Shown piece by piece: positions 18,230-37,875 of a stretch of DNA of 64,000 bases. A program made the translations under genes and the position numbers. Numbering within the stretch: position 1 is the first letter of the stretch; every line of letters starts with the position of its first letter. Location of the stretch: contig NZ_CP011125.1 of assembly GCF_000737325.1 (NCBI RefSeq), positions 682,001-746,000 of the forward strand, in the 5' to 3' direction. The stretch is from Sandaracinus amylolyticus (GTDB lineage: Bacteria > Myxococcota_A > Polyangia > Polyangiales > Sandaracinaceae). The notes beneath the pieces are model-generated. The model made no database searches and was not told the DNA's origin. It was given only the letters and a program-made list of their open reading frames with translations.

Positions 18230-19393
18230 TCAACCCAAATGCCGGGGCTGCGCGGCCGCATCAGGATCGTCGGTCATTAGCAGGCGCCACGAGTAGGGCC
18301 GCACACCTCCACGCCGGTAGTTGTAAGCGTAGACGCCGGGATGAACGGTATTTCGCACCTGACGACCAAGGGCGAATGACAGGCACATGGGTGTCGCCGC
18401 GAAGAGATGTACACGGCTGATGGAGTCAACGCGAGCGATGCGCTCCAGCGCCTCCCTGAACGTGCTCGAGTACGCTTCGATCTGCGTTCTACTCCGGACG
18501 ATGTCGAGTGCGGGCGCATCCACAGCGAGCCTCACGATGGGCATTTCGCCGACCGAGGAGACGATCTGGTGTGTCGTGACCGGGTAGCTTACGCCCACCG
18601 AGATCGCGACGTCACGCGTGTCGCCGAGATCGTCCGGTTGATGAACTTTCAGATCCGGGAACGGCGTCGTGGACTCCCCAAGCCACCGCCATACGTTTCC
18701 GTCGCGCTCTCGTTCGGCGTAGTGCACAGACATGCGTGTGCCGAGGAGGTGGCCCATGTGAATTGCTAAGGGGACGTGGGCAATGCCGTAGTACGCGAGT
18801 TCGACGTCAGGCACGCTCTCGAGATGCCCCCAAAGGGCGTTCCTCGCTCGCAGGTGCTCCACGACGACGGCACGCAGATCGACAGCGTTTTCACGCGCGC
18901 ACGGCGCGCGAACGTCAGCCACGACCTCGTGAACGTGGCGGAACAGAAGCGGCATCGAGCGCGCGAGAGAGCGATCGGGGATGAGCTCCATCGACCGGTG
19001 CAGGAGTGTGACGAACGCTGGCATCGCGTCGCGCTTCTTGGCGAGCTCGACCGCTTCGCGGGCACGCTTCTCCGCTTCGGATTTCCACTCGCGGAGCACG
19101 TCTGCACTGAACGGTGAGCTGTCCGCGTCCACGATTTCGTGGCAAGCGCAGCACAGCCAGATCCCGTTCGTCGCCGCACGGCGCTGCTCCGGCGTCAGCG
19201 TTTCGTCGTAGCGGGGCCCTCCCTTCGCTGCAGAGGTGATGTGACCCGCCTCCCCGACGCTGACGGACTTTGACGGGTCGGAGTGCGGTCCCGCGGTGAT
19301 CCGGCCACAACCCGGCTTCGAGCACACCGACGCGACTCGGCGCTCGAGCTGGCGCTTCACGTCGGGCGTGAAGTCGTCCCTGTTGCGGCCCAT
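18230..19393 (-). CDS. cap5: CBASS effector: HNH nuclease fused to SAVED domain (Cap5-like)
   Basis: A 387-residue protein. Residues ~20-95 form a beta-beta-alpha-metal HNH domain: Cys24/Cys29, then H51 in AGHITS, N76 in TNGIWL, and C81/C82/C84-H85. Residues ~130-380 match the SAVED domain that senses cyclic oligonucleotides (AISVGVSYPVTTHQIVSS, and the C-terminal HLFAATPMCLSFALGRQ). Family members degrade DNA when bound to a second messenger made by the CD-NTase. The ATG at 19393 shares its A with the TAA stop of the CD-NTase, proving co-translation. Length agrees with Cap5 (~390 residues). Confidence 0.93.
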   Translation of the reverse strand: MGRNRDDFTPDVKRQLERRVASVCSKPGCGRITAGPHSDPSKSVSVGEAGHITSAAKGGPRYDETLTPEQRRAATNGIWLCCACHEIVDADSSPFSADVLREWKSEAEKRAREAVELAKKRDAMPAFVTLLHRSMELIPDRSLARSMPLLFRHVHEVVADVRAPCARENAVDLRAVVVEHLRARNALWGHLESVPDVELAYYGIAHVPLAIHMGHLLGTRMSVHYAERERDGNVWRWLGESTTPFPDLKVHQPDDLGDTRDVAISVGVSYPVTTHQIVSSVGEMPIVRLAVDAPALDIVRSRTQIEAYSSTFREALERIARVDSISRVHLFAATPMCLSFALGRQVRNTVHPGVYAYNYRRGGVRPYSWRLLMTDDPDAAAQPRHLG

Positions 19394-20673
19394 TAGGCGA
19401 CGCGCACTTTGCGGTTGGCTGTCGCGATCACCCGTCCGTTCCGCACGATCTCGCAGCGCATCGTATGGTCGCCGCGGAAGCGAGTATGACGCCAGGTGAC
19501 GAGGTCGCGGCCTTCTCGAGTGTGACCTAGGTCGGCGGCAGCTTCGGCCTCGTCGCCTTCGTTCTTCACCGTCCAGCGGACGACGTCGTCGCGCTTGAGC
19601 TCGTGCGCGACCTCGAAGCGGAGCCACATTCCTTTTGGGAGCGGCGGCTGCGATGACCGGTACGAAGCCTCTCGAAGAGGTCCGTTCTCGTGTTGGGCCA
19701 CGCGGATCGTGAGGTTCACCGCGGTGGTCGCATCGGTCTTCGTGTCCTGCTCGGTGACGAAGAAGTCGTGCCGAAAGACAGAGTTCCACGCCGTTCGCGC
19801 GGTCGCCTCATCGCAATTGCGATCGTCGAGCACGTCGAGTTTGGGCAGGAGATCGTCCAGGCGCTTCTGCAACCGACGCACCTGTGCCTCGGTCTGCGGT
19901 TTCCCTGTGAGCTCCTGGGCCGCGTCGACGGGGCTGAAGACGCGCTGGTTCTTCACGAGCCGATCGCGTAGCGCGATCAACGTCTTTCGCAGGGAGACGT
20001 CGTCCCGCGACGGGTCGTGCTGGTACACCTCCGTGACGAGGGTCGTCGCAATCATGCCGCCCGGTAGGCTCCATGATCGACGCGACGCGCAGAATCGCTT
20101 CACGAACCGGACGATTCGGCGGAGCTGCCCCCGTTCGACATCGATTAGCCAGAACGGACTGAGCGCGTTCACCCGGTCGGTGAACCACTGGGTCACCTCC
20201 GAGGGATCGCGGGCAGTCCAGTCCGCACCGGCGTGCTCCAATCCCTTCGCGGTGCGCCGGTAGACGGCGAGATCCACGTGGTGGCCCTCCGCATACCACA
20301 CAGTGACAGCGTTCGTACGGGCCTCGGGATCACGAAGAAATGTCGCGCCGGACTGGAGCAGTGCCTCGGCGACTCGCTTTCGTGAATCCAATGCCGAGGC
20401 TGGGAGCACGGACTCGTCGAAGATCACTCCGGTGTCGATGTCGTAGTCATCGTCCGGATGCTGGTTGAGCGTGTGCATCGCATAGCTGCCCTGGTCGAGA
20501 TGACTCTCGAAGGTCGCTTTCGACGCGCCGCGAATGGGACCCAGCTTCTCCAGGCCACTTTTCAGCCGGTCGAGGTTGGTGTCGCGCAGCTTCGCCAGCC
20601 TCGCGCGGCCATCTCGACCGAGCCGCAGCTTCTCGTTGTAGAACCGGTTCAGGAGCTTGCTTGCGTCGTACAT
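19393..20673 (-). CDS. cdnTase: CD-NTase (cGAS/DncV-like) second-messenger synthase of CBASS
   Basis: A 426-residue protein starting at ATG 20673 behind GAGAGG. The nucleotidyltransferase active site is complete: GSYAMHT (62-68), D78-x-D80 in DYDIDTG, and third carboxylate D134 in HHVDLAVY. Residues ~180-320 are the helical SMODS-type core. Residues ~345-426 resemble the AGS-C ligand-sensor-like domain often appended to such enzymes (WTVKNEGDEAEAAADLGHTREG). On phage infection such enzymes make cyclic di- or trinucleotides that activate the neighbouring HNH-SAVED effector. No Cap2/Cap3 or HORMA/TRIP13 genes accompany it, so it is a minimal type I-like CBASS. It lies 115 nt after the Res-like gene on the same strand. 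Confidence 0.93.
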   Translation of the reverse strand: MYDASKLLNRFYNEKLRLGRDGRARLAKLRDTNLDRLKSGLEKLGPIRGASKATFESHLDQGSYAMHTLNQHPDDDYDIDTGVIFDESVLPASALDSRKRVAEALLQSGATFLRDPEARTNAVTVWYAEGHHVDLAVYRRTAKGLEHAGADWTARDPSEVTQWFTDRVNALSPFWLIDVERGQLRRIVRFVKRFCASRRSWSLPGGMIATTLVTEVYQHDPSRDDVSLRKTLIALRDRLVKNQRVFSPVDAAQELTGKPQTEAQVRRLQKRLDDLLPKLDVLDDRNCDEATARTAWNSVFRHDFFVTEQDTKTDATTAVNLTIRVAQHENGPLREASYRSSQPPLPKGMWLRFEVAHELKRDDVVRWTVKNEGDEAEAAADLGHTREGRDLVTWRHTRFRGDHTMRCEIVRNGRVIATANRKVRVA

Positions 20674-20788
20674 CGTCGTCGCCTCTCGCGAGTGTTCGAC
20701 GGAACCATGCCGCGGGACTGACAGCACAAGACGATCCCGACACGTCGATACGCGTACCAAGGTGATCCCGGCGCGGAACTCGGCGGGT

Positions 20789-23700
20789 CTAGTGACTCGC
20801 TCTCAGATACTCGATCGTCTCCCACATCACGCGACAGTCGACCTCGTTGTAACGCTCGACCTCGCGTGCGAGATCGATATCGCGCAGCGCGCACCCACGC
20901 TCTCGCGCCTCGCGCTGTGCCGACCACGCCGCGACCATCGCGCCGAGCCCGTCCGTCGGTCCGTCGGACCACGACGTCTTGACGAGGCCGTGCGTGTGCA
21001 GCGCCTTCGCGATCGCTTTGAGGCCGAATCCGAGCGCACCGCGCACCACCACCGGCTCGGCCTTTATCACGCGGTTCAGGAAGTCGAACCACTCGGGCAC
21101 CGGCCACTCGGCGCTCGGGTGCCGACGGCGCGCGGAATTGTACGCGGTCTCGAGGTTCGACACTTCGGCGGGCGACCAGTGGAAGACGCGTGGTGCGCCC
21201 TTCGTGCCACGGCGGGCCTGGACCGCGCGCATGTGGTCAAACCACGCGGTCAGCACGCGTGCCTCGCTCTCCGCGTCGAGCGCGTCTGCGGTGAAGCAGC
21301 GGAACACCCAGTCACCGTTCTCGATGTGACCGCACCCGACCATGAAGATCAGCGGCTGGCCGCCGCGCTCGGGGAGCTTCTCGAAATCGTCGTCGAGATC
21401 ACTGATAGTCTCGAAGTCGACGAAGAACTCGAGCTCACTCGGGCGACGCCACTCGCCCTCCGCGACCTGAACCCTTGCGGGTCGAACCGGAGGTCCCGAC
21501 GCATCGCGGTTGACCTCGAGCAGAGCGTCGAAGACAGGCTTGGTCTTCGGGCCCTTGAGCCCGACATCTTCGGCCGTGAGGCGCTTGTCGTCCCACGCGC
21601 GGATCTTCTTCTCGATCGCCGCCGCGCGGCGGTCGACGCCGACCTGCCAGAGCAGCGTGAGATCCTTCGTCTCGCTCGCAATCCTCCGCTTCGCGCCGTG
21701 CCACGGCGCGTCGAGCGTGTTCTTCATGTTGGGTCGCAGGGCGTCGTCAGAGATGAGCGGCAGCACGCTCCACTCGGAGCCGCGATCACGCACCTTGCGC
21801 ACCCACTGCACGGCGGCTTCGACCTCGTCGGCGAGGCTCCGCCCCTTCGCGAGCCGGCCGTCCTGCGGGACCCACGCCAGACGGTCCATGCACGAGCGCC
21901 CGCGCGCCTTGCCCTGTTCCCAGCCCCGGCCGAGCAAGAACGACGAGGGCGGCAGGAAGCCCTGAGCGCGTCCGAGCGCGCGATTGTAGAGGAAGAGCTG
22001 CGCCTTGTAGGCGCGGGCCGAGCCCTCGTTGCCGAGCTCGCCGGACTCGAGCAGGTGCAGCGTCGTGAACTTCGCGTCGACGACCCGGTAGTGCCAGGGC
22101 CGCTCTCCGAGCCCGGGAGCCCTCACGCTCGCGACGCTCGGCGCGTCGGGCCGCGTCGCATCGAACCACCCGGCGTCGAGCTCGAGCGCGTCGGGGAAAA
22201 GGCGCTCGAGCACGTCGCTGCGGACGAGCAGGTCGGGCGCGCCGTAGGTGCGGGTCTCGAGATCGTGGAGCACGGCCTCGTGAATCACCTCCACGCCATC
22301 TCGCATCGCCGCGAGTGTCTCCTCGGCCTTGCGCGGATCGGCAGTGTGTTCGGGACTCCTGGAGATGCGCACCACGTTCGCGCGCTGCGAGATCAGGCGC
22401 ACCACCGCCTGCTCGAACTCGCGGCTCTTGGTCATTACGAAGCGCGTGAAGTCGGTTCGCGGATCGAAACCCGGCCTCGCGTCGTCACGCTCGAAGCCCT
22501 TCTCCACGCCGTAGAGATCGAGCCAGTCGAGCAGCGGATCCGCGAGCATCCAGCTCCGGGTCCGAGTCGCGGCGACCCAGTCCTCCCAGCCAGTGCGGTT
22601 CGCGTCGGTCCGCGCCGGCCGAGCGGTCTCGGCGTACGCGATCCGCAGCTCGTCATCGGCTTCCAGCGTTCGCGCCGGCGCGGGCTCCACGAGCTCGAAG
22701 CGGGACGGCTGCGCGATCCCCCGGAGCAGCGCCGGGATCGCGGACGCGTCCTCGAGCACTTCATAGCGCCAGCGGCCGAACCCGCCGTGGTGGTTGATCG
22801 CCTTTACCCAGCGCTGAGCCGCGCTCTCCTTCGTCTTCGCGTCCTCGTTCCGCCAGCCCTTGGTCTCGAGGATGACCGTGACCTCGCCGCCGTCGTCGGC
22901 GCGTACGCGCACCAAGAAGTCGGGCAGGTACGAGCGCGAGACCATCTCGTCGCCGCTCGCGCGGATCTCGTACGGGATCACGAAGCCGAGCCGGTCGTTC
23001 TTCACGTACGAGACGACGACGTCCGCCAGGTCTGCGTGCTCCAGGTAGAGCATCGCCTGACCTTCAAGCCCGCTGTCGACGACGAGGTGCGAGACGTGGC
23101 TCCGGGTCGTCGGATGCGCGGTCTTCGTGGTGCGGAACTGCACATCCTCGGTCGAGCCAATCGGTCGGTGTCGTTCGATGCGCGGCAACAGAGGCGTCTC
23201 GCCGAGATCGTCGTCGGGCTCGATCGCGTCGAGGATCCGCGTGCGCACCTTCTCGGCGTATTTCTCGAGCGCGACCTCCTCGCGGCGCGCCCCGCCGATC
23301 GCGACGAGGCGTTTGTCGAACACGTCCTCGACGATCGTGAGCACCTGCGGGAAGAGGACCTGCGCCTGACCGGGTGACCACGTGCTCTCGCCATCTCCGG
23401 CGTGCGCACGGGTCATCTGCCGCACGATGTCGGCGGCGATGCGGAACGCGGTCTTCTGCAGGCGATGCTCTTCGTGGAACGGAAGACGGGTGAACGTCTC
23501 CAGCTCCTCCATCACTCCCACGAACTTCCGGCCGCCCTCGGTGGGCAGGCTGGGCGCGACCTGGGTCAGTGTCGTCTCGACACTCGGCTCGATCGTGAGC
23601 GATGGGATGCTCTCCACGTCGCAGCGCACGCGCTGCTTCACGTCGAGCACGTAACCCTCGACGCGCGGGAACTCGATGGCCAGGTGCTTCCGCGCCGGGT

Positions 23701-25663
23701 CCGCCTGCACCAGCGTCGAGGGTTGAGGCGGCTTGGGCGGACGGGTGCCGGTGCCCTGCACCGGGATGACCTCGAACGGCACGCCGAAGATGTCGGCGTA
23801 CTCCGGCTCGAGCATCCCGTCGTCGTTCACCTCGTAGCTCATGCGGCGCAGCGCGCGCCCGACAACCTGCTCGCAGAGAAGCTGCGACGAGAACGCGCGG
23901 AGGCCGAGGATCTGCGTGACGTTCTGCGCGTCCCAGCCCTCGGTGAGCATCCCGACGCTCACGACGCACCGGACGTGCTTGCCGGGCGGCTCGGCGAGCT
24001 GCGCGCGCGCCTCGTCGGGCAGGTTCTGCACCGAGGCCGGCAGCACGCTGCCCTCCCACTGCGCCTTGCCGACCGTGGCGACCTTCAGGCGCAGGAGCTG
24101 CTCCTGCACTTTCTTGCTCGCCCCGCCGGTCTCGGACTCCGCTTCCTTCAGCACCGACGTGTCGATCTGGAACGACACGTCACCCGCGAGCTCGCCGAGG
24201 ACGTAGCCGGCCCGCACGTGCTCGGCGATCACCTGCGCGATCTTCGTGTTCGCCGCGACGACGATCATCGCGGGCGGCACCGGCTGCCCCGACGCGCGGA
24301 ACTCCGCCAGCGTCTCCTGCCACTTGCCGGCGAGCATCGACAGCGCGCCCTGCGCTTCCCGCCACACCGCGTCCGGGCTCGGCGCCGCTCGCGCTCCGCC
24401 GCGCTCCGCGGGGCTGAGCTTTTCGAGCACGGTGCGCCAGAGGTGGAAGTACTGCGGATCGGGCTTGCCTGAGTCGTCGCGCACCGGGATGCGCGGCACC
24501 TTCGTGATTCCGCTCTCGATCGCGTCGACGAGCGAGAAGTCGCTCACGATCCACGGCAGCGGCTCGCCCTCGGGGCGACCCGAGCCCTTGAGCGCGAAGG
24601 GTGTCGCCGAGAGGTCGATGCAGAGCTTGATGCCGGGCTGCTTCGGGCCCTTGCCGAGCACCTTGTTGATGCGGTCGAGCCCGCCGACCCAGACCGTCGC
24701 CTCCTCGGCCTCGTCCTTCGCCTCGTCGCGCTCGTCGCGCGAGAGCCCCTCGAGCTCGGTCTGCTGGTCCTCGATCGGCTTCGCGGGGCGCCACGCGTGG
24801 TGCGCCTCGTCGTTGAGCACGAGGATCTGCTGGGCGCCGCGCAGCTTCTTCAGCACGCGCCGCACGAACGCGGCGTCGCTCTCCACGCCGCGCTGCACGA
24901 CGCCGCGTTTGCCCTCGTCGGAGCGCACGAGGAACTCGTGCCAGTTCGAGATCTGTACCTTGCCGCGCGCGAGCAGCTCGCGATAGCCGCGGGGCACGAG
25001 GTCGAAGCGCTCGTAGTAGCTGCCGGCGACGTTGGGATCGAGGACCCCGAGCCGGTCCTTCACCGTGAGGTTCGGCGCGACGACGAGGATCGCGTCGGTG
25101 AAGCGCCCGTCGGTCTTGTTGGTGAGCCTGTTCAGGATCGACCACGCGGCGAGCATCGCCATCACGGTCGTCTTGCCCGACCCGGTCGCCATCTTCGTGC
25201 AGTACCGAGTGAGCGGCAGGTAGCCCTTCGCGACGCTCTCGGGATCGACCGGGACGTCGGGCTCGATGCGGATGCCCTGGCGATCCGCCTCCGATGCCTC
25301 GACCAGGTAAATGATCGTCTCAGCGGCCTCGCGCTGGCAGAAGAAGATCGGGCGCCGGGCGGGGTCGTTCCAGTGGTCGAGGAGGTCGCGAGTGGTGCGG
25401 CTGACGTTGGGGTAGTTGCGCGCGCGCCACTCCTTCACTCGCGCTCGGATGTCGTTGACCGTGTGGAGCAGGATCTGCTGCTGCTGCGCGTGCGCGACGT
25501 CGCCCGCGCGCTCGGTTCGCGCGAGCCCGGTGTAGCCCGCGGGGCGCCGCCCCTCTCCCACGCGCGCGCTGGGCCCGGAGAAGTCCCAGTAGCGCGTGGG
25601 CTCGTGGAAGGGGCTGTTCAGGATCGGGTTGTCGACCGCATTGCGCGGCAGCTCGTGACTCAC
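20789..25663 (-). CDS. Res-like SF2 helicase with three nuclease-like modules
   Basis: A 1624-residue protein. The helicase has Walker A MATGSGKTT (158-166), DEAHHAW (285-291), SAT (352-354) and motif VI VGRALRR (601-607). Next comes a type III Res nuclease: PDF at ~914 and ETK at 933-935. A second PD-(D/E)XK follows: PDLL at ~1143 and VVDAKF at ~1194-1199, with YKAQLFLYNRAL. The last ~215 residues resemble the YprB/RNase_H_2 exonuclease-like domain: VDFETIS (1415-1421) and YNEVDCRV (1605-1612). The last two modules together look like a TM0106-type RecB family protein fused onto Res. The gene starts 7 nt after the methyltransferase stop, so they act as a pair. Domain fusion is seen; activities are inferred. 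Confidence 0.9.
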   Translation of the reverse strand: MSHELPRNAVDNPILNSPFHEPTRYWDFSGPSARVGEGRRPAGYTGLARTERAGDVAHAQQQQILLHTVNDIRARVKEWRARNYPNVSRTTRDLLDHWNDPARRPIFFCQREAAETIIYLVEASEADRQGIRIEPDVPVDPESVAKGYLPLTRYCTKMATGSGKTTVMAMLAAWSILNRLTNKTDGRFTDAILVVAPNLTVKDRLGVLDPNVAGSYYERFDLVPRGYRELLARGKVQISNWHEFLVRSDEGKRGVVQRGVESDAAFVRRVLKKLRGAQQILVLNDEAHHAWRPAKPIEDQQTELEGLSRDERDEAKDEAEEATVWVGGLDRINKVLGKGPKQPGIKLCIDLSATPFALKGSGRPEGEPLPWIVSDFSLVDAIESGITKVPRIPVRDDSGKPDPQYFHLWRTVLEKLSPAERGGARAAPSPDAVWREAQGALSMLAGKWQETLAEFRASGQPVPPAMIVVAANTKIAQVIAEHVRAGYVLGELAGDVSFQIDTSVLKEAESETGGASKKVQEQLLRLKVATVGKAQWEGSVLPASVQNLPDEARAQLAEPPGKHVRCVVSVGMLTEGWDAQNVTQILGLRAFSSQLLCEQVVGRALRRMSYEVNDDGMLEPEYADIFGVPFEVIPVQGTGTRPPKPPQPSTLVQADPARKHLAIEFPRVEGYVLDVKQRVRCDVESIPSLTIEPSVETTLTQVAPSLPTEGGRKFVGVMEELETFTRLPFHEEHRLQKTAFRIAADIVRQMTRAHAGDGESTWSPGQAQVLFPQVLTIVEDVFDKRLVAIGGARREEVALEKYAEKVRTRILDAIEPDDDLGETPLLPRIERHRPIGSTEDVQFRTTKTAHPTTRSHVSHLVVDSGLEGQAMLYLEHADLADVVVSYVKNDRLGFVIPYEIRASGDEMVSRSYLPDFLVRVRADDGGEVTVILETKGWRNEDAKTKESAAQRWVKAINHHGGFGRWRYEVLEDASAIPALLRGIAQPSRFELVEPAPARTLEADDELRIAYAETARPARTDANRTGWEDWVAATRTRSWMLADPLLDWLDLYGVEKGFERDDARPGFDPRTDFTRFVMTKSREFEQAVVRLISQRANVVRISRSPEHTADPRKAEETLAAMRDGVEVIHEAVLHDLETRTYGAPDLLVRSDVLERLFPDALELDAGWFDATRPDAPSVASVRAPGLGERPWHYRVVDAKFTTLHLLESGELGNEGSARAYKAQLFLYNRALGRAQGFLPPSSFLLGRGWEQGKARGRSCMDRLAWVPQDGRLAKGRSLADEVEAAVQWVRKVRDRGSEWSVLPLISDDALRPNMKNTLDAPWHGAKRRIASETKDLTLLWQVGVDRRAAAIEKKIRAWDDKRLTAEDVGLKGPKTKPVFDALLEVNRDASGPPVRPARVQVAEGEWRRPSELEFFVDFETISDLDDDFEKLPERGGQPLIFMVGCGHIENGDWVFRCFTADALDAESEARVLTAWFDHMRAVQARRGTKGAPRVFHWSPAEVSNLETAYNSARRRHPSAEWPVPEWFDFLNRVIKAEPVVVRGALGFGLKAIAKALHTHGLVKTSWSDGPTDGLGAMVAAWSAQREARERGCALRDIDLAREVERYNEVDCRVMWETIEYLRASH

Positions 25664-25670
25664 GGGCGCC

Positions 25671-28556
25671 TCACTTCTTCAGCGCGCGGCGCGCGTCGAC
25701 GATCTTGATGACCTCGTTGCCGCGATCGTCGATGACCTTGACCGCGACCTTGTGCCCCGGCTTGAAAGGCAGAGACCGCGTGGTGCGGAGCTGGGCGAAC
25801 TTGTCCTCGTCGATCGCGCCCTTGAGTGCCTTCTGGAGCTTCTCCCAGGCGTTCGCGCCGCCGCCGGGGAAGAGCGCCTGCGAAACGCAGAAGCTCTTCC
25901 CGTCGTAGTCGTGGTCGACCAAGATCGCCGCCGCGCCGTCGCCCTTCGCGCTCGAGGTGAAGCCGGTGGTCGGGTCGTAGAGGTCGATGCCGACCAGTTC
26001 GACCGACACCAGCGAGCCGCCGTTCTCGGGGTGCACCCGCACGTCGGGTGCGCCGAAGACGGCGAAGAGCTGATCGGTCTTTCGCTTCTTGAGCAGGTCG
26101 CCGACCAGGATGTCGGGCGCGGCGTGGGCGAACATGACCTCGCGCCCCGGTACGCCCGCGTCGATCATCTTGCGAGCCTCGGGGTCGCACGCGAATCCCG
26201 CGAACACCAGGACGTCGGCGCCGCGGGTCTCGGCAATCGCGCCGAGCACCTGCGTCGGCGTGACCGGTCCGTGCCGGGGTCCGAACGAGATCGCGAAGGT
26301 GCGGGGATCGCCTTCGGCGTCCGAGCCGCCCTCGGCGTGGAACCACTCGTAGTTGCCCTTGACCGTGCGGAGCGCGGGGAACCGGATGCGCTTGTTTCCC
26401 GGCAGCACGATGCCGGTCTGGCGCAGCAGCTCGACCATCGTCGACAGGTAGTCGGTGACCGCATCCGAGAAGTGCCCCGGCACCGCCGCGGACTTGGACA
26501 CCGGCCCGCCGGCGTCGCGCTGCGTGTCCTCCATCGACGGCAGCGGGATCGCCTCGACCGTGAACGGCCCCGAGACGCGCACCCGTTTCTTGTCCTCGAA
26601 GGGCTGGTCGTAGAGCGTCTCCTGCTCCGCGCTCTCGCGGATGACCCGATCGATCTCCTCCTTGGTCTTGCAGGCATCGATCTTCGGATTCTGCGCGATC
26701 GACTTGAGCGTGATGTGAGGGACGGTCTTGTACTTGAATCCGTCGCGCACTCGATTCGAGCGGAGCTCGTAGTAGGGGAACTTCGCTGTGATGAGCCGCT
26801 GTCGAGCGAGCGAGAGCGCGACGCGGGACGTGTCGCAGGTAATCCAGCGACGTCCCCACTGCTCGGCCACGTAGGCAGTGGTCCCGGAGCCGCAGGTCGG
26901 GTCGAGGACTAGATCACCAGGGTCGGTGGTCATCAGGATGCAGCGCGCGATCGCCTTCGTACCAGTCTGGACGACGTAGAGCTTCGCGTCACCGAAACCA
27001 CTTCCCCGAGTGTCGTCCCAGATGTCGTTCCGCGGCTTGAACGGGAAGTCGTCAAGATAACGAATGAACGTCAGCGTGTTCCCCACAGGCAGCAAGCGGC
27101 CAGCCCTCTGGAGGCGGTCCAATCCTGCCTTGTCGGATCGAAAAGTACCGGCTCCTGGAGTGAAGCGCTTCCCGTCGAGGTAGTACTCGCGAAGGTCATT
27201 TCCCGAAGCAGGCCGCTGATTGGTCAGCGGGTTGGGCCGATACGCACGCGCACGTGGAGGCAGGGCATCGGTGCCGTCGGCCTCTCGGTCGGTCATTCGG
27301 CGTCGCGTACCGTCCGCGAGCTCAACGAATCGAAGGTTGTCATCGTCTACAACCGATCGAGGCTCGAAGACCGGACGGTATTTGACTTTGCCCCTGTCGC
27401 GGGCGAACCAGAGTAGAACGTCGTAAGTGTTATCGAGCAGCTGCCCGCCCTTTCCAGTGGTCTTGCGGAAGACGACTTGGCTGACGAAGTTCTCTGCGCC
27501 GAACACTTCGTCTAGTACGAACCGCACACGATGTACGTTCTCATCGCTAATCTGAACGAAAAGACTGCCCGCTTCGTTGAGCAGGTCCTTGGCGACGAGG
27601 AAGCGATCACGGAGATAGCTGAGATAGCTATGAATCCCGAGCTCCCAAGTGTCGCGATACGCCTGGACCTGCTCGGGCTCGCGGGTGAGACTCGCGTCGT
27701 CGCCGTCCTTCACGTCTCTCCGTGAAATCGACGGCTGAAAGTTCGAGTTGAACTTCACGCCATACGGCGGGTCCATGAAAATGCACTGGACCTGACCGGC
27801 CATGTTCTCGCGCTCGAGCAGCGAGTTGATCACCAGCAGCGAGTCGCCGAGGATCATCCGGTTCGACCAGCCGACCTCGTGCCCGTAGAAGTCGATCTCC
27901 TTCGACGACGGGAGCTCGGGCTTCGCGAACAGGTTGAGCTGACTCTCCTCCTGCTCCTCGCGCTTCACCGCCCGGAGGATCGCCTGGGTCGAGACGCGCT
28001 CGTGAATGTGCAGGCTGACGGTGTCGATCTCGAACTTGGCGTGCTCCTCCTTGCCGGCCCAGACGAGCTGCGGATCGAGGTGGGGGTCGTACGCGTATTC
28101 CTTCTTCCGCTTGGCGGGTAGGCGCTCGAACTCCACCAGGCCAGCGGGCGGGTTGTTCTTGCGCTTCTCGTCGTGCCGGTACTCGCCGACTTCGCCCTCG
28201 AGAGAGGTCTGGTTGCCGCCCGCGCGCTTCTTCTTCGTCGCCATCCCGCTCTCGTCCCTCTCGCCACCACGTCCCGCGTCGCTGCTCTCGATGGTGAGCT
28301 TGCCGATCAGGCGATCGACGAGGATGCCCTTTTCGCGCCCCCGCTCGTCGAGGCCCAACGCCCGACACAGATCTTTCAGCCTGTCGCGTGGCAACTCGAC
28401 GAGCTCGACCGCAAGGTCCACGCGACGTGCCCTCGCGATGCCGTCCACTAGGCGATCCCGCACGCGGCGGTCGGACACCTCGATGCCGTGCGCGTCCACG
28501 ATCCGCAGCAGCTCGTCTCGTGCGAGCTGGGACAGCACGTCGCGCTTGCTCACCAT
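25671..28556 (-). CDS. SAP-containing beta-class DNA methyltransferase (type III Mod-like)
   Basis: Start set at ATG 28556; the frame is open further upstream but reads as Arg/Ser-rich noise. Of 961 residues, ~1-85 hold two tandem SAP-like helix-extended-loop-helix units (LARDELLRIVDAHGIEVSD; LPRDRLKDLCRALGLD) expected to bind DNA. Motif IV DPPYG at 262-266 precedes motif I LDPTCGSGTT at 551-560, the order of beta-class N6-adenine methyltransferases. Residues ~600-961 form a long C-terminal part, probably target recognition and Res docking. It protects host DNA from the Res-like partner 7 nt downstream. Upstream lies the PD-(D/E)XK-TOPRIM gene 52 nt away. Confidence 0.9.
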   Translation of the reverse strand: MVSKRDVLSQLARDELLRIVDAHGIEVSDRRVRDRLVDGIARARRVDLAVELVELPRDRLKDLCRALGLDERGREKGILVDRLIGKLTIESSDAGRGGERDESGMATKKKRAGGNQTSLEGEVGEYRHDEKRKNNPPAGLVEFERLPAKRKKEYAYDPHLDPQLVWAGKEEHAKFEIDTVSLHIHERVSTQAILRAVKREEQEESQLNLFAKPELPSSKEIDFYGHEVGWSNRMILGDSLLVINSLLERENMAGQVQCIFMDPPYGVKFNSNFQPSISRRDVKDGDDASLTREPEQVQAYRDTWELGIHSYLSYLRDRFLVAKDLLNEAGSLFVQISDENVHRVRFVLDEVFGAENFVSQVVFRKTTGKGGQLLDNTYDVLLWFARDRGKVKYRPVFEPRSVVDDDNLRFVELADGTRRRMTDREADGTDALPPRARAYRPNPLTNQRPASGNDLREYYLDGKRFTPGAGTFRSDKAGLDRLQRAGRLLPVGNTLTFIRYLDDFPFKPRNDIWDDTRGSGFGDAKLYVVQTGTKAIARCILMTTDPGDLVLDPTCGSGTTAYVAEQWGRRWITCDTSRVALSLARQRLITAKFPYYELRSNRVRDGFKYKTVPHITLKSIAQNPKIDACKTKEEIDRVIRESAEQETLYDQPFEDKKRVRVSGPFTVEAIPLPSMEDTQRDAGGPVSKSAAVPGHFSDAVTDYLSTMVELLRQTGIVLPGNKRIRFPALRTVKGNYEWFHAEGGSDAEGDPRTFAISFGPRHGPVTPTQVLGAIAETRGADVLVFAGFACDPEARKMIDAGVPGREVMFAHAAPDILVGDLLKKRKTDQLFAVFGAPDVRVHPENGGSLVSVELVGIDLYDPTTGFTSSAKGDGAAAILVDHDYDGKSFCVSQALFPGGGANAWEKLQKALKGAIDEDKFAQLRTTRSLPFKPGHKVAVKVIDDRGNEVIKIVDARRALKK

Positions 28557-28608: not shown

Positions 28609-29811
28609 TCAGGGGTGACGCACCGCCCCGGAAGGACCGACATGGCTGGCGACGAACGCGAACAGCGCCTCGAGCTGCGGGTCCTGCGCGATCTTCTCGA
28701 TGGTCGAGGGCGACAACCTCGAGAAAAACTGGCCGCGCCCGGTTCCACCAAGCCGGTGTTCGAGCACGCGCCGAGGCCTATCGGTCGCGAGCTCCTCCTC
28801 GTTCGAATCAAGCGGCGGTTCACCAGGAAAAGCCAGCGCGAACGCGTCCGGTCGAAGAACGAGGGCCTCGAGCTCCGGTGCGAGCACCACGACGAGCGAC
28901 ATGTCGTCGCCGGCTGCGAGCTGCAGTGCGTCCTCTGCCTCGGCCTTCTGGAGGGCGATACCCTCCGCCTCACGCGTGTCCGCGTCGAACATCAGCACAA
29001 CGGCCGTTCTGCCGACGGCCGCCAACGATCGCGCAAGCGCCTGCGCCGCCTCTTTGCCGCGTGCGGGTACGACGCGATAAGCGGAACGATCGAACCGAGT
29101 ATCGAGCAATTTCGTCAGCAGCACGCGGTCGTTCTCCCCCTCGACGATCACGATCACGCGTGCGCCACTGACTACATCGACCGGTGGGCCGGGCTCCAGC
29201 GGGTCGGGCGACACCGACGCGAGCTCGTGAGAACCCACGAAGAAGTCCGGCAGTCCGTGCTCTATCGCCACCCGCAGCTTCATCTCGAGCGCTCTGGCGA
29301 AGCCGTTCTCCGCGCTGAGCGCCCAGCTGATGTCCTCCGCGTTCCACAGAAGAATCGGGTGCTCGATCATGAAATGCGCGGCGACTCGGGCCGACGCCGT
29401 GAAGCCCCGCTTGCTGAAGACGGATCCGATGCAGAAGCGAGGGCGCCGCAGCAGCTGATTCCTGAGCTTTGACAGCGACTCCGAGTTCTGTGGGGTCGTT
29501 CGATCCTTCGCCTCGCAGATGCAGCGGATCTCCCCGACGCGCACCATCCCGTCGATCTGCTCGAGCTCGAGATTGTTGCGAGGTCCACGGAGTGCCGAAG
29601 TACTCCCGAGACGGACCGAGTAGGGATACGTGACCTGCGCTCCGTCTAACTCGAATGCTCGCAGAACAAGGTGCTCGAGGGCCTTGCCTTTCGCCCAAGC
29701 AGTCTCCTTGCCTGCGAGAATGTCGCTCCATAATGCCTGGAGCTCGGGACGCTGCATGCCCCTGGCAGCCTTCGCCAGCTTGCTCGCGGTGGATTGCTCT
29801 TGCGACGACAT
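28609..29811 (-). CDS. PD-(D/E)XK nuclease - TOPRIM fusion protein
   Basis: A 400-residue protein with two recognisable halves. The N-terminal ~190 residues match a restriction-endonuclease-like fold: helix E46 (GKALEHLVLRAF), D87 in EQIDG, and E100-A-K102 in ICEAKD. This is the full D-ExK catalytic set, similar to Mrr-type nucleases. Residues ~216-330 match TOPRIM: VIVEGENDR with E224, and LMFDAD with D276/D278, preceded by VVPARGKEAA as in OLD-family TOPRIMs. The C-terminal ~70 residues are unassigned. It sits inside the defence operon between the HEPN-like and methyltransferase genes. I know of no named defence protein with this exact pairing. Metal-dependent DNA cleavage is inferred from both folds. 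Confidence 0.8.
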   Translation of the reverse strand: MSSQEQSTASKLAKAARGMQRPELQALWSDILAGKETAWAKGKALEHLVLRAFELDGAQVTYPYSVRLGSTSALRGPRNNLELEQIDGMVRVGEIRCICEAKDRTTPQNSESLSKLRNQLLRRPRFCIGSVFSKRGFTASARVAAHFMIEHPILLWNAEDISWALSAENGFARALEMKLRVAIEHGLPDFFVGSHELASVSPDPLEPGPPVDVVSGARVIVIVEGENDRVLLTKLLDTRFDRSAYRVVPARGKEAAQALARSLAAVGRTAVVLMFDADTREAEGIALQKAEAEDALQLAAGDDMSLVVVLAPELEALVLRPDAFALAFPGEPPLDSNEEELATDRPRRVLEHRLGGTGRGQFFSRLSPSTIEKIAQDPQLEALFAFVASHVGPSGAVRHP

Positions 29812-29823
29812 CGAGAGGCTCCG

Positions 29824-30267
29824 TTAAGTTCGTGGCACGTGAGGGCGTAGCCAATCCAACACAGTTCGCATCACTCGTTTCGCGACGACGTCATCGACGC
29901 GATCTGGCTGATGAGCCGCCTCATTGCGGAGATCGACGAGCCGTTGCAGTCGCGAGGTTGTCTTCACGCGGCCATCGATGGCTATCGCCCGAACGAGTGG
30001 CTCGGACGAATCGTGAGCCCCAGCCGCGATCAGCACGCGAAGGTACGAGCCCGCACCCTTCGTGACCCCCGCTCGAGCGAGCTCCCGTTCGAGCGTTGTG
30101 CCCGTCGCGCGACAGGCTAGGGATGCGGCGACGCGGAGCAGGCGTTCGAGCTCCGTACCAGCGAGATTGTAACCGCCAACGCGCGTGGTCCGCGGCGCAT
30201 CAGCCCTCGCGACCTCACGCTCGAGGCGCTCGATCAGCGCTCTCGCTGCCGTGTCCAGCTCGCTCAT
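29824..30267 (-). CDS. HEPN-like small protein (RX4H motif)
   Basis: A 147-residue all-helical protein. Its C-terminal segment has VDLRNEAAHQPD, where R114 and H119 match the RX4-6H catalytic motif of HEPN ribonucleases, followed by a final amphipathic helix. The start overlaps the stop of the SAP-kinase gene (4 nt), and it ends 12 nt before the PD-(D/E)XK-TOPRIM gene, so it is embedded in the operon. HEPN proteins in defence loci often act as toxins or sensors held in check by a partner. Here the partner could be the overlapping kinase. RNase activity is inferred from the motif alone; an inactive structural HEPN is possible. Confidence 0.65.
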   Translation of the reverse strand: MSELDTAARALIERLEREVARADAPRTTRVGGYNLAGTELERLLRVAASLACRATGTTLERELARAGVTKGAGSYLRVLIAAGAHDSSEPLVRAIAIDGRVKTTSRLQRLVDLRNEAAHQPDRVDDVVAKRVMRTVLDWLRPHVPRT

Positions 30268-31658
30268 CGCCCTGCCTCCAGCGCGTCGATGAATGCGCCG
30301 CAGGCTGGAAACCGTTGGCGCGGGTCCGTGTGGAGTGCGCGATATACCGCATCACGCTGTGAGCTCGAGAGCATATCAGCGTATCCCGGACTGCGAATCC
30401 ACGCGTCGACTCCGTGCAGAATCGCGCACAGGACGCGCGCGAGGCTGAACTGGTCGGATGCGGAGACGAGCCTTCCCGTACGCACCTCCGGGGCGCTGAA
30501 ATGATCGCTCTGGCCGAGGATCGACGTCGCGTGACGAGTCTCGCCTGCTGAGTGCCGGACGAGGGTCGCCGAAATCCCTAGGTCCGCGAGTCGCACGCGC
30601 CCACGGTCATCGATGAGGATGTTCCCTGCGCTGACGTCGCCGTGGACTCGTTCGTGCTCATGCATAGCGTCGAGCCCCGTGGCTGCCTGTCGCATGATCG
30701 CTAGCGCATCGCGCCAGAGCGCCTGCCGCGTCGCGTAGCGCTTCGCGAGCGACTCGCCTCCGTGCTCCATCAGAACGAACGCGCCGAACGTTTCGTCGTG
30801 CTCGTCGTGGAGGTAGCGACACACGTTGCGGTGCGTGATCTCGAGCCCTGCCGCGAACTCGCGGCGCAGAATGTCCACGCATTCAGGGTACGGGAATTTC
30901 GCCACCAGCAATCGCGCAGCGTCGGAGCGCTCATCGCGGACTTCGAACGTGGTCGCCATGCCACCGCGGCCTAGCTCCCTCGTGATGCGGTACCGCCGCG
31001 CAACCAGGACGCCCGCTTTGAGAACCAGCGGGTCCGTCGCGCGCGTCTGGCTTCCATTTGGCGTCGTACCCGACGTTCGCAAGGCTCGCGGCACGGCGGT
31101 GCTCGTTCCGTTTGGAGCGGCCGCATGATTCGCGGAGCTGTCGAGGTCCTCGTTCTCAGCGCGCTGGTGCGTGCCGAGGTCGTCGACCAGCTCGTCCCAC
31201 ACGTTCGAGATCAGCGTGTTTCCGTGCATCCCCTCGATCGCATCGAGAACGTCATCCGCTTCGACGAGGAGGATCTCGGCGTAACGCGCCAACAGGCTGC
31301 GATCCTCGCGAACGTCGGCGACGGAGTAATCACCGATCGCCTCCATTCGACGGCGTAGCCTCGTGCGGTCGAAGCGGACGCACTGCGCGAGCTCTTCTCG
31401 GACCTCATCCCAGCTCTTCCGCCGGGAGCCACCCAGCTCCTCGATGAGCGAGTTCCAGTCCGACGTTCCCCAGGGGCCTTGCGCCGACACGAGCTCGCTG
31501 AGGTCCCGTTGCACTCGAGCTGCGATGCGCGACGCGAGCTTGGCCTTCGTGCCGGATGTCGGTAGGTCGTAGTAGTCCGCGAACGTCCTGAGCTCCACGA
31601 GCGAGAGCTGATCGAGGATCATCCGCACCGCGCTCTTCCGGGGCATCACCCCGATCAT
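30264..31658 (-). CDS. Ser/Thr kinase with N-terminal SAP domain
   Basis: A 464-residue protein (ATG at 31658; a second in-frame ATG at 31646 gives MPRKS). Residues ~9-45 form a SAP-like DNA-binding unit (LSLVELRTFADYYDLPTSGTK). Residues ~60-165 are helical and unassigned, then a Ser/Thr-rich linker. The kinase domain spans ~220-460: Gly loop LGRGGMA, K254, catalytic loop HGDVSAGN (HGD instead of HRD; D341 and N346 kept), DLG with D359, and SAPE. Catalysis therefore looks possible. It heads the minus-strand operon and starts ~50 bp from the divergent helicase gene. The same type of SAP unit occurs in the operon methyltransferase, suggesting both gather on the same DNA. Confidence 0.85.
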   Translation of the reverse strand: MIGVMPRKSAVRMILDQLSLVELRTFADYYDLPTSGTKAKLASRIAARVQRDLSELVSAQGPWGTSDWNSLIEELGGSRRKSWDEVREELAQCVRFDRTRLRRRMEAIGDYSVADVREDRSLLARYAEILLVEADDVLDAIEGMHGNTLISNVWDELVDDLGTHQRAENEDLDSSANHAAAPNGTSTAVPRALRTSGTTPNGSQTRATDPLVLKAGVLVARRYRITRELGRGGMATTFEVRDERSDAARLLVAKFPYPECVDILRREFAAGLEITHRNVCRYLHDEHDETFGAFVLMEHGGESLAKRYATRQALWRDALAIMRQAATGLDAMHEHERVHGDVSAGNILIDDRGRVRLADLGISATLVRHSAGETRHATSILGQSDHFSAPEVRTGRLVSASDQFSLARVLCAILHGVDAWIRSPGYADMLSSSQRDAVYRALHTDPRQRFPACGAFIDALEAGR

Positions 31659-31710
31659 ACCGATCTCGCCCAGCTTGCGTCAGCGGTCGGCGTTCGCCGA
31701 TGCTCTTCGC

Positions 31711-34700
31711 ATGGCGATGCACATCAGCGCCCGAGTGGCGTGGCATGACGATGGGTGGAACGGTCACATCTGTCGCAACCCGGCCGGGAACACGTTCTGC
31801 GTCGGGAGCCGGTCGTACCCTGGTGAGTCGATCGCCGAAGAGCGCGACCTAGAGTGGGAGACTGCGAACGCCGGGCGTCCATGCGAGAGCGTCGACGCGA
31901 TGCCACCGTGCAGCTGGAGCATCAACGCTTTCGGCAAGAAGCGCCTGCGCGCATACGCAGACGCCCCGGACTTCTTTGCGTCGGGCACGCCACGTCGAGA
32001 ATGGGATGTTCCTGCGTCTACGGTGTGCCTGTGGCCGTATGAGGAGATGTACGGCCAGGAGCTTCGTGACGGGAAACGGTACGACCACGCCAAGAGGCTC
32101 GCCCGTGCGCGGGAGTACTTCGCCCAGATCGAGCCACAACGGAGTTTGGTCTTCTACTACGCCAACTACAGCAACCCATTCAGTGAGGACGAAGCGCCGC
32201 GATACGTGGTGGTCGGGATTTCACGGGTGAGGGAGATCGGGCCCGAGCTCTTCTACGAGGGTGCCGCTGAGAAGGACAAAGAGCGTTACGGCGGAGCGTT
32301 CGTGTGGTCTCGGAACGTGACCTCAGCTTATCCGGACGAAGGACTGCGTCTTCCGTACCACCGGTATCGTCGCGACCGAGAAGCGCTCGACCGTTTCGTC
32401 GTCGTGCCCGACAATCCGAGGCTCTGTAAATACGGTACCCGCGCGTTCAGCGATGACGACGCGCTCGGACTCGTAGAGCAGCTCCTGGCTGCCGTCCGCG
32501 AGCTTCGAGCGATGGGCGATGACAGCGAAGACTGGCGCGTCCGCGAGGATTGGCTGCACGCCATTTCCGGGGAGCTGTGGCGCGACCGTGGCTTGTATCC
32601 TGGGCTTCCTGCAGTCCTCGAGTTTCTCGGCGCGGCACCTGCAATCGAGCCACTGCGTGCGTTACCTGCCGCGAAACACTCCACCTTCGCCGAGGGCGTG
32701 TTCGCCGCGCTGGAAGTCGGGCGCGGGGGCAAGCCATTCGGGCTCGACGAGGCGACGCTCAAGCGCGCGAGCCGGCGATTTCGACTCCTGGACGATGGCG
32801 CTCGATCCGTCGCCCAGCGCATCTTGCCGCGCCTGCAGATCACGCGCGATCACGTCGACCGAATCGTAGGCGAGAACCGTGAGGAGCATGGGCTCCCCGA
32901 GAACCTCGACCACATCGCGCAGGACCCGTACGTGCTTTGTGAGCGCTTCATCGGAGACGATCCCGATGACAGGATCACGTGGGCCACGGTCGACCGCGCG
33001 GTGTTGCCGTCGCCGGACCTCGGCGGGGCGCCGCTCTCCGACGTCGGTCCCGACGATGCGCGACGCTTTCGCGCGCTTCTCGCGGACGCACTCAGGCGCA
33101 ACACGTCCGACACGTTCGTGCCGGTCGACCATCTGATCTCCCAGGTGAACGACCGCCTCGCGAAGCTTCCGGCGTGGAAGAGTCACGCATTCAGCTCGCG
33201 CTACCTCGAAGTCGATCGCGAAGTGATAGCTGCTTCGCTGGTCCAGCGAGAGATCGAGGGTGCGAAGTACGTCTACCTCGAGAGTGCCTGGCGAGACGAG
33301 CGAGCGATCGAAGACTACTTTAGGTTCTTCGCCGGCGGTCCGGACGTGCCGCTGCGCCGGCCTGTCACCGAGGCGCACTGGCGCAATTGGCTGCATCGGT
33401 CCGACAGCGTGCTGGCGGGGCTCGAGGGGGACGATTACCGCACCGCGATCGACGGACAGATCGCTTTGTGTCAGCGCCTGTTCCGACGGCCCCTCGCGTG
33501 CATCGCCGGCGCCGCCGGAACGGGCAAGACGACTGTCGTTCGTGCGATCGTAGACGCGGTTCGCCTCGCTCACGGCGACGGCTCTCCCGTTCTCGCCCTT
33601 GCGCCGACGGGGAAGGCCGCCGATCGACTGCGTGAGGTACTCGGCACGCGCTCTGGAGTGCGCACAGAAACCGTGCACGCGTTTCTCGCACGGAATGGAT
33701 GGCTGCGCGACAACATGACTGTGCGCCCTCAAGGGCGCACACCGGACACGAGCTGCGAGACCGTCATCATCGACGAGTGCTCGATGCTGGACCTGGAGGT
33801 GCTCGCAACGACGCTCCGAGCGCTCGACCGGAACGCAGTACGTCGAATGATTCTCGTCGGAGATCCCAACCAGCTGCCCCCGATCGGACGCGGCCGTTCG
33901 TTCGCCGACATCGTCGAGTGGCTCACGGCCGAGCATCCGGACTGCATCGAGACGCTACAGCAGAACCTGAGGCAACTCGAGGGACGAGCGACCGGGCGCG
34001 GAACGGGGATTGTCGACCTTGCGCAGGCCTTCATGGGGGCGACCCTCGCCGCTGTAAAGGACGAGTCGAGCGGTATTGCGACCGAGGAGATGCTCCGCCG
34101 CGTCCAATTGGGAGGCGACGTCGACGCCGACCTGCGGGTGATCTACTACGACGACCCGCAGTCACTCGCGTCACTTCTGCTCGCGCGGATCGACGCTGAC
34201 CTGACTGAGCTATGGCCCGACGGCGCTGATCCTCCGACCTACAAGCTCTGGCAAAAAGGCTTCGAGCAGGGTCCGCAGGCTTGGCAGATCCTGACTCCTA
34301 CGCGCGGTGAGATGCACGGGATCGAGGCGCTCAATCGCGAGTGTCAAGCACACGTCACATCGGGTATACGAGATCGAGCTGGTGCACTCGATGGAATCAA
34401 GCTCTTCGATAAGGTCATCCAGATCAGAAACCGCACGAGGTCACGGCCGCTCTACGCGTGGGACCAGACGCAGAGATGCGTCGTCGCGACAGAAGTGTTC
34501 AACGGCGAGATCGGCCTGGCCTCGATACACTCGTTCGACTCCGAAGAGTGGAAAAAGAGGTTCTTCCGGCTGAAGCGGATTCAGGTCTCGTTCGCGCGCA
34601 AACCTCACCTTCGCGTCTCGTACGGTGAGGACACCGGAAAGACTCCCGATGGTCGATGGGCTCCGCGCGAGAAGGTCGAGGACAACCTGGAGCTCGGGTA

Positions 34701-35724: not shown

Positions 35725-36510
35725 TCATCGGTTCACTTGGTCGTGGTCGGTCCGCCGAGCAGACCGGCCTTGCGCTTCTGCTTGAGCCGGAAGCTCTCGC
35801 CCGTGATCACGAGCGTGTGTGTGCAGCAGGCGATCGAGGATCGCGGCGGCGAGCACGTCATCGCCGAAGACGTGGCCCCACAGCGTGACCGCCTGGTTCG
35901 TCGTGATGAGCATGCTTCCGCGCTCGTAGCGCCTGGCGACGAGCTGGAAGAACAGATGCGCGCTGCGACGCTCGAAGGGCAGGTAGCCGAGCTCATCGAT
36001 GATGAGGAGCTTCGGCTTCGCGTAGAAGGTCAGGCGCTCTGCGAGCTGCCCCTCCGACTCGGCCTTCGCGAGCGCGGCGAGGAGCGCGGTCGCGCTGACG
36101 AAGAGCACGGAGTTGCCGGCTTCGACGCACGCACGACCGAGCGCGATCGCGAGGTGCGTCTTGCCGACGCCGGGCGGGCCGAAGAGCAGGACGTTCTCGC
36201 CGCCGCTGATGAAGCGTCCGGTGGCGAGCTCGCGCACGAGCTTCTGGTCGACCGACGGCTGGAAGCGGAAGTCGAACTCGTCGAGCGTCTTCTGCGCGGG
36301 GAAGTGCGCGATCTGGATCCCCATCGCGATGCGCTTGCGCTGCTTCGAGCTCACTTCGCCGGCGAGCACGCGATCGAGGAAGTCGAGGTAGGTCAGACTC
36401 TCTCGCGCCGCCTCCGAGAGGTACGCATCGAGGCGCTCGACGACGTGTCCGAGGTGCAGCTTCGTGAGCGTCTCCACGACGCGTGCGTGCGTGAGCTCGA
36501 CGCCGTTCAC
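35725..36510 (-). CDS. istB: IstB-like ATPase of IS21 element
   Basis: 261 residues if started at the GTG at 36510, which overlaps the istA stop as GTGA, the usual coupling in IS21; an ATG at 36531 is also possible. Walker A GPPGVGKTH and Walker B LLIIDELGYLPF are intact, as in DnaC-like IstB proteins. IstB forms an ATP-dependent oligomer that selects target DNA and activates the IstA transposase. It ends ~60 bp inside the left end of the element. Confidence 0.95.
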   Translation of the reverse strand: MNGVELTHARVVETLTKLHLGHVVERLDAYLSEAARESLTYLDFLDRVLAGEVSSKQRKRIAMGIQIAHFPAQKTLDEFDFRFQPSVDQKLVRELATGRFISGGENVLLFGPPGVGKTHLAIALGRACVEAGNSVLFVSATALLAALAKAESEGQLAERLTFYAKPKLLIIDELGYLPFERRSAHLFFQLVARRYERGSMLITTNQAVTLWGHVFGDDVLAAAILDRLLHTHARDHGRELPAQAEAQGRSARRTDHDQVNR

Positions 36511-37799: not shown

Positions 37800-37822
37800 C
37801 TCAGCCTCCTCGTCAGGCCGAC

Positions 37823-37875
37823 GACGGGGGTCAGTTTTACTGTCGCGAGGGGGTCATTATTGCTGTCGCCCTACA
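37823..37875 (-). repeat. IS21 right terminal inverted repeat
   Basis: Read on the minus strand it begins TGTAGGGCGACAG and contains the unit TAAAACTGACCCCCGTC, matching the left end over about 53 bp. Confidence 0.85.

What the first reader, a model, noticed from the sequence alone, without database searches (positions are those of the whole stretch)
20789..25663. Single protein with helicase and three nuclease-like modules
The Res-like protein carries DEAH helicase motifs, a type III PDF...ETK module (~914-935), a second PDLL...VVDAKF module (~1143-1199), and a C-terminal VDFET...YNEVDC RNase-H/YprB-like module. The last two together look like a TM0106-type RecB family protein attached to Res. 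This could let one enzyme cut and then degrade DNA.
Basis: partly seen in the sequence, partly recalled or inferred. Interest (0 to 1): 0.75.

Follow-up and report, generated by a model that had tools for sequence, protein, structure and literature searches.

The report
Restriction helicase-nuclease fused to extra nucleases
A bacterial anti-virus restriction enzyme here carries, on the same protein chain, a second two-part DNA-degrading unit normally found as a separate protein; this is a real and so far unique fusion, and it shows that this enzyme family picks up different extra parts at its tail end.

Summary
The 1624-residue open frame (20789-25663, minus) is a BPTD_3080-family type III-like Res subunit (residues 10-980; NF046055, 940 bits, cut-off 800) next to its Mod methyltransferase. 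It is fused to a ~600-residue module (1021-1624) made of a RecB/Cas4-type PD-(D/E)XK nuclease and a YprB-type RNase H-like exonuclease. Profile comparison ties the whole module to TM0106 proteins (E 4e-28 over 479 columns; shuffled controls nil). Eleven sequences share the catalytic residues of both domains, and the fold search puts the first half with Cas4, MGME1 and Dna2. It is not a TM0106 member by cut-off and lacks the cysteine cluster. Elsewhere the module is a free-standing protein, in one case beside an Hhe-like anti-phage helicase. No other fusion of it to Res turned up in 80 GTDB loci, 377 Myxococcota genomes or 57 plasmids. The same Res family carries other C-terminal units: TIR, EAD11, S24/LexA-like. 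Most likely action: Mod-directed cutting of unmethylated DNA, then degradation in cis. A triggered, less specific effector is the main rival. New variant of a known kind; the exchangeable tail slot is the larger lead.

The parts
20789..25663 (-). Whole gene: Res core fused to TM0106-like double-nuclease module, 1624 aa (GTG start as given; frame open to 25678)
22724..25636 (-). Res core, residues 10-980: BPTD_3080-family type III-like SF2 helicase-nuclease
   Evidence: NF046055 940 bits against cut-off 800; ResIII PF04851 over cut-off; about 35-43% identity to GTDB relatives over the same range
25169..25198 (-). Walker A motif TKMATGSGKT, residues 156-165
   Evidence: K157, T160, G161, G163, K164, T165 invariant in 92 sequences
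24800..24811 (-). DEAH box, residues 285-288
22859..22924 (-). First nuclease active site PDF...ETK, residues 914-935
   Evidence: P914, D915, E933 100%, K935 99%; weak RE_endonuc PF19778 and TnsA-like PF08722 hits
22604..22723 (-). Linker / fusion junction, residues 981-1020
   Evidence: most Res relatives end about residue 980; standalone relatives of the module start aligning at residues 1024-1026
20792..22603 (-). TM0106-like module, residues 1021-1624
   Evidence: hhalign to TM0106 proteins E 4e-28; 45-49% identical standalone proteins; alignment A4
21884..22603 (-). RecB/Cas4-type PD-(D/E)XK domain, about residues 1021-1260: E1084, D1144, D1196-x-K1198, Q1222xxxY1226
   Evidence: half-module hhalign E 1.3e-18; conservation; fold search Cas4 Z 12.0, MGME1 10.5, Dna2 8.3
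20792..21451 (-). RNase H-like (YprB-type, DEDD) exonuclease domain, about residues 1405-1624: D1416, E1418, HW..AE1500, D1527, K1549, Y1605xxxD1609
   Evidence: half-module hhalign E 8e-11; PF13482 RNase_H_2 E 0.029, below cut-off; conservation
25671..28556 (-). Mod partner: N6/N4 DNA methyltransferase, ending 8 bp before res (likely ATG at 28556; frame open to 28973)
   Evidence: PF01555 E 4e-27; PADLOC MTase_III PDLC03632 578 bits; Mod homologue within 3 kb on the same strand in 62 of 80 Res loci

Best explanation
The gene encodes the restriction subunit of a type III-like restriction-modification system that acquired, by in-frame gene fusion, a free-standing TM0106-like nuclease. Proposed action: Mod methylates the host's sites and, on unmodified invading DNA, positions Res (inferred from type III enzymes). 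Res hydrolyses ATP and moves or switches along the DNA, and its PD...ETK domain cuts (inferred from the family). The new end or exposed single strand is passed in cis to the C-terminal module, where the Cas4/MGME1/Dna2-like nuclease and the DEDD-type RNase H-like exonuclease resect and degrade it, making the cut irreparable (inferred). Shown here: the domains, the intact catalytic residues, the Mod partner and the fusion. Not shown: any activity, strand polarity, or the order of events.
For: Res core far over the curated cut-off, with all helicase and nuclease motifs kept. Mod is adjacent here and in most relatives. The module is homologous to TM0106 over both halves, with clean negative controls. 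Catalytic residues of both added domains are conserved in 11 sequences from Myxococcota, Acidobacteriota, Chloroflexota and one viral contig. The fold search puts Cas4, MGME1, Dna2, Exo5, lambda-exonuclease and AdnA-type exonucleases on top. TM0106-family matches in Myxococcota lie mostly in frames of 1161-1225 aa, and one such protein that was scanned is fused to an AAA_11/AAA_12 helicase; one standalone module relative sits 78 bp behind an Hhe-like anti-phage helicase. So helicase plus this nuclease pair recurs. The locus is a defence island.
Against: Only one fused example exists in the collections searched, so selection for the fused state cannot be shown. No helicase or clear defence gene was recognised beside the Chloroflexota relatives of the module, so its native role may not be defence. 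Classical Res proteins cut without such a module. The RNase H half was not structurally verified (pLDDT mostly 25-79).
Confidence: 0.55

Rival explanations
1. Triggered effector: the C-terminal slot of this Res family holds an effector that is switched on when Res-Mod engages foreign DNA. Here the effector is a non-specific nuclease that attacks any accessible DNA or RNA, host included, giving abortive infection as a backup when ordinary restriction fails.
For: Other members of the same Res family carry a TIR domain (L002, PF13676 E 3e-24) or an EAD11 effector-associated domain (L035) at the same place; TIR domains in bacterial defence usually deplete NAD (general knowledge). The tails lie on separate branches of the Res tree.
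Against: The attached unit is a DNA end-processing type, which fits cis degradation better; nothing in the sequence shows a switch. The tails are unrelated to each other and may serve different purposes.
Confidence: 0.22
2. Passive fusion: the free-standing nuclease was joined to Res by loss of a stop codon between neighbouring genes and keeps its own separate job (for example DNA repair), with no cooperation.
For: Single occurrence; standalone relatives in Chloroflexota lie among unrelated genes; a GC-rich genome has few chance stops.
Against: All three nuclease sites and the helicase remain intact although the Res core sits on a long branch, and the gene sits in a dense defence cluster. No Res locus was found with the module as a neighbouring gene, so the expected two-gene precursor has not been seen.
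Confidence: 0.15
3. Dead tail: the added domains bind DNA ends or clamp the complex but are catalytically inactive.
For: The cysteine cluster seen in many TM0106 proteins is absent; inactivated nuclease domains are known at the C-termini of other defence helicases (PMC12458937).
Against: All expected metal-binding and catalytic residues are present and conserved across the family.
Confidence: 0.05

Closest known systems
BPTD_3080 family restriction endonuclease (NCBIfam NF046055)
   Same: Residues 10-980 match end to end above the curated cut-off; same helicase and PD...ExK motifs; same Mod partner
   Different: Members usually end 14 residues after the core (median); this one has 639 more residues with two more nuclease domains
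TM0106 family RecB-like putative nuclease (TIGR03491), also found fused to AAA_11/AAA_12 helicases
   Same: Same order of RecB-type and RNase H-like domains, same motifs, alignable over 479 columns; also found joined to a helicase
   Different: Far below the family cut-off, no cysteine cluster, and joined to an SF2 type III Res with its own nuclease instead of an SF1 helicase
EcoP15I/EcoPI type III restriction enzymes
   Different: EcoP15I Res is about 111 kDa and has no further nuclease; mechanism here not tested
MrfAB/YprAB repair pair
   Same: SF2 helicase associated with, or fused to, a YprB homologue (PMC12458937)
   Different: YprA is a different SF2 helicase family; no Mod partner and, to my knowledge, no RecB-type domain
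Bacterial DNA2-like helicase-nuclease Bad
   Same: One polypeptide with a RecB/AddB-like nuclease and a helicase that unwinds and degrades DNA (PMC7430649)
   Different: SF1B motor, Fe-S cluster, not a restriction enzyme

Membership tests
BPTD_3080 family restriction endonuclease (NF046055) | Score over the curated cut-off across the model | tested here: met
   940.4 bits against 800, model positions 1-966 of 970
BPTD_3080 family restriction endonuclease (NF046055) | Intact SF2 helicase motifs and PD...ExK nuclease site | tested here: met
   92-sequence alignment
Type III restriction-modification system | Adjacent Mod-type DNA-amino methyltransferase | tested here: met
   PF01555 and MTase_III models; adjacency in 62 of 80 loci
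Type III restriction-modification system | ATP-dependent cutting near unmethylated, oppositely oriented asymmetric sites | not testable with these tools
   needs biochemistry and methylome data
TM0106 family (TIGR03491) | Score over the curated cut-off | tested here: not met
   16.7 bits against 97.45
TM0106 family (TIGR03491) | Homology over both the RecB-type and RNase H-like halves | tested here: met
   hhalign E 4e-28 over 479 columns; halves alone 1.3e-18 and 8e-11; controls nil
TM0106 family (TIGR03491) | Cysteine cluster CxxC...C after the nuclease core | tested here: not met
   absent in the window protein and three relatives; pattern present in 6 of 9 TM0106 proteins compared
RecB/Cas4-type PD-(D/E)XK nuclease (second module) | Fold and active-site residues | tested here: met
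   Residues conserved; model matches Cas4 Z 12.0, MGME1 10.5, Dna2 8.3 over 164-178 residues. Caveat: mean pLDDT 53 and TM0106 rows in the model's alignment
RNase_H_2 / YprB-type exonuclease (PF13482, third module) | Score over Pfam cut-off | tested here: not met
   14.7 bits against 22; relative L121 16.3 bits
RNase_H_2 / YprB-type exonuclease (PF13482, third module) | Predicted fold | tested here: inconclusive
   this half of the model had pLDDT mostly 25-79 and found no credible match
MrfAB/YprAB | YprA-type helicase with DUF1998 region | not tested
   from the literature only

The most novel reading that the evidence does not exclude
The BPTD_3080 Res family is a modular sensor platform: the Mod-Res core detects unmodified DNA, and an exchangeable C-terminal slot carries an additional effector (nuclease pair here; TIR, EAD11 or S24/LexA-like peptidase in others), so that classical restriction is wired to secondary responses, including cell-suicide ones.
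Probability: 0.3. Interest if true: 0.75.

Novelty: new variant of a known kind. Interest (0 to 1): 0.52.

Why it matters
Restriction enzymes are usually thought to cut once or a few times and leave clean-up to RecBCD-type enzymes. A Res with its own resection unit would be a self-contained cut-and-destroy machine, useful as a tool and informative about how breaks are made irreparable. The finding that relatives put a TIR domain, an effector-associated domain or a LexA-like peptidase in the same place raises a testable question: do type III-like restriction enzymes also act as sensors that trigger other immune responses?

Tried and rejected
Pfam, PADLOC and NCBIfam scans alone did not identify the C-terminal module. 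PDB sequence searches found no relative of it. Phage records held no relative of the protein, and the plasmid collection had relatives of the Res core only, not of the module. The first AlphaFold run with two sequences was useless (pLDDT 36); the second with five reached 53 and was usable for the RecB half only. G176 (L084/L086) was a spurious hit in a frame antisense to another gene. The idea that the module is always a helicase partner was weakened: no helicase was recognised in the Chloroflexota neighbourhoods, although gene calling there was crude. A separate internal start for the module was considered: in-frame GTG V991 and ATG M1039 exist, without a convincing ribosome-binding site by eye, so one polypeptide is more likely. 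The fold search showed no RNase H-fold structure for the third module; with that confidence this is no evidence against it. Literature searches found no description of this fusion or of BPTD_3080-family tails in the open library.

Full report
What is in the sequence. The minus-strand frame 20789-25663 is open for 1624 codons and is the only copy in its complete 10.3-Mb genome. Residues 10-980 are a BPTD_3080-family restriction endonuclease (NCBIfam NF046055, 940 bits, cut-off 800, model positions 1-966 of 970), with relatives at about 35-43% identity across many phyla and up to 49% on plasmids. In an alignment of 92 members the Walker A, DEAH, SAT and QxxGR motifs and the nuclease residues P914, D915, E933 and K935 are essentially invariant. 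The gene directly upstream is the Mod methyltransferase, and a Mod homologue lies within 3 kb on the same strand in 62 of 80 related loci; the rest are cut by contig ends, slightly further away, or lack a detected one.

The extra module. Most family members end near residue 980 (median 14-residue tail). This protein continues for about 640 residues. Family libraries give only hints: TIGR03491 (TM0106) at 16.7 bits and PF13482 at 14.7 bits, both under their cut-offs. Relatives settled it. A 553-residue standalone protein in an Acidobacteriota genome aligns to residues 1026-1624 at 45% identity, and a 621-residue one in another genome of that phylum aligns to 1024-1621 at 49%. Further relatives were found in Chloroflexota and Planctomycetota and on one IMG/VR contig. 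A profile of four sequences matches a profile of nine TM0106 proteins with E 4e-28 over 479 columns; each half matches on its own (1.3e-18 and 8e-11), the window sequence alone gives 1.6e-15, and shuffled, reversed and decoy controls give nothing. In 11 sequences the expected active-site residues are invariant or at least 90% conserved: E1084, D1144, D1196, K1198 and Q1222 for the RecB/Cas4-type site, and D1416, E1418, E1500, D1527, K1549, Y1605 and D1609 for the RNase H-like DEDD site.

Structure. AlphaFold with two sequences failed. With five sequences (window, one viral-contig relative and three viral-contig TM0106 proteins) mean pLDDT was 53, best in the RecB region. Against solved structures, the top matches of that region are all RecB/Cas4-family exonucleases: Cas4 (Z 12.0, 164 residues), MGME1 (10.5), Dna2 (8.3), Exo5, lambda exonuclease, AdnA. 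Caveats: low overall confidence, and the alignment contained TM0106 rows. The RNase H half could not be judged structurally.

Is the fusion unique? Neither the C-terminal sequence nor its three-sequence profile found a relative fused to, or lying beside, Res in the 80 best GTDB loci. Of 377 Myxococcota genomes, 13 have the Res family over its cut-off, and only the window's frame exceeds 1250 residues. None of 57 plasmid records with a Res match has one covering the C-terminal part. One other Myxococcota genome has a decayed 112-residue remnant of the module at 63% identity beside a Vsr-like gene.

Context. The gene lies in a run of co-directional genes (31658 down to 18230): SAP-protein kinase, small protein, endonuclease-like/TOPRIM protein, Mod, Res-nuclease, a CBASS cyclase and an HNH-SAVED effector. 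This is a defence island. TM0106-family matches in Myxococcota sit mostly in frames of 1161-1225 residues, and one Chloroflexota example that was scanned has AAA_11/AAA_12 helicase domains. The standalone module relative in G791 starts 78 bp after an Hhe-like anti-phage helicase (NF042953, 1508 bits, below its 2000 cut-off). No helicase was recognised beside the Chloroflexota relatives of the module.

An unexpected wider pattern. The same Res family carries other C-terminal units: a TIR domain in Chthoniobacter flavus, among the relatives nearest to the window (PF13676 E 3e-24); an EAD11 domain in a Phaeodactylibacter genome; S24/LexA-like peptidase domains in four Res proteins, three of which are more distant family relatives and three of which pass the S24 cut-off; and an unidentified 170-residue tail in a Bacteroidota-rich clade. 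In a tree of the Res core the tails lie on different branches, and the sister of the TIR-bearing protein has a short tail, so they look like separate acquisitions. The tree is a quick one with long branches and serves only as a guide.

Mechanism. Shown: domains, intact sites, Mod partner, in-frame fusion. From knowledge of the families: type III Res works with Mod, hydrolyses ATP and cuts (PMC4005696); Cas4, MGME1 and Dna2 relatives degrade single strands from ends (general knowledge); a helicase plus RecB-type nuclease in one chain unwinds and degrades DNA in Bad (PMC7430649). Inferred: one enzyme cuts unmethylated DNA and degrades the product in cis. The main rival, suggested by the TIR and EAD tails, is that the tail is a triggered effector. 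No activity could be tested here.

Verdict. This is a new variant of a known kind: a type III-like restriction enzyme with a captured TM0106-like double nuclease. The module is a distant relative of TM0106 proteins, not a member, since the score cut-off and cysteine cluster tests failed.

Noticed in passing
L002:9944-13834 (+), Chthoniobacter flavus: One of the window Res's nearest relatives carries a C-terminal TIR domain (PF13676 E 3e-24) in one 1297-codon open frame.
   Followed up: partly
L035:1750-5157 (+), Phaeodactylibacter MAG: A Res of the same family ends in an effector-associated domain EAD11 (PF19964 E 4e-8).
   Followed up: partly
L099, L102, L103, L104 (Myxococcota genomes G107, G030, G115, G263): Res proteins with a C-terminal S24/LexA-like peptidase domain (PF00717, three of four over cut-off).
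   Followed up: partly
L027, L028, L038, L047, L051, L059, L060: Res proteins of a mostly Bacteroidota clade share an unidentified 170-180-residue C-terminal tail; the two scanned had no Pfam match there.
   Followed up: partly
L128:4302-11594 (+): Hhe-like DUF4011 anti-phage helicase (NF042953 1508 bits, below cut-off 2000) followed after 78 bp by a standalone relative of the C-terminal double-nuclease module: a candidate two-gene defence system.
   Followed up: partly
L151:4944-6935 (+), IMGVR_UViG_3300003890_000058: Relative of the module (34-37% identity) on a viral contig whose other genes (GlmS-like aminotransferase, Lon-like ATPase with an apparent intein) suggest a giant virus of eukaryotes; origin not tested.
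   Followed up: no
window 18230-20760 (-): CBASS pair directly behind the Res gene: DncV-like cyclase with AGS_C and an HNH-SAVED effector.
   Followed up: partly
window 28609-31658 (-): Upstream co-directional genes: SAP-domain protein kinase (PD-T4-6-like), a small protein, and a protein with an EAK-type endonuclease-like N-terminus plus OLD-like TOPRIM domain; may belong to the same defence operon.
   Followed up: partly
window 36507-42778 (-): Mu/IS21-type transposase, AAA_15/AAA_21 ATPase with DUF3696, and a reverse transcriptase (PF00078): further defence or mobile genes in the same island.
   Followed up: no
window 31675-35313 (+): 1212-aa SF1 helicase (AAA_30, UvrD_C_2) with a C-terminal stretch that looks like a TnsA/Vsr-type nuclease motif (FLPDFTI...).
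   Followed up: no
L085:9537-10626 (-), genome G262: Decayed 112-residue remnant of the module (63% identity) beside a Vsr-like endonuclease gene in another Myxococcota genome.
   Followed up: partly
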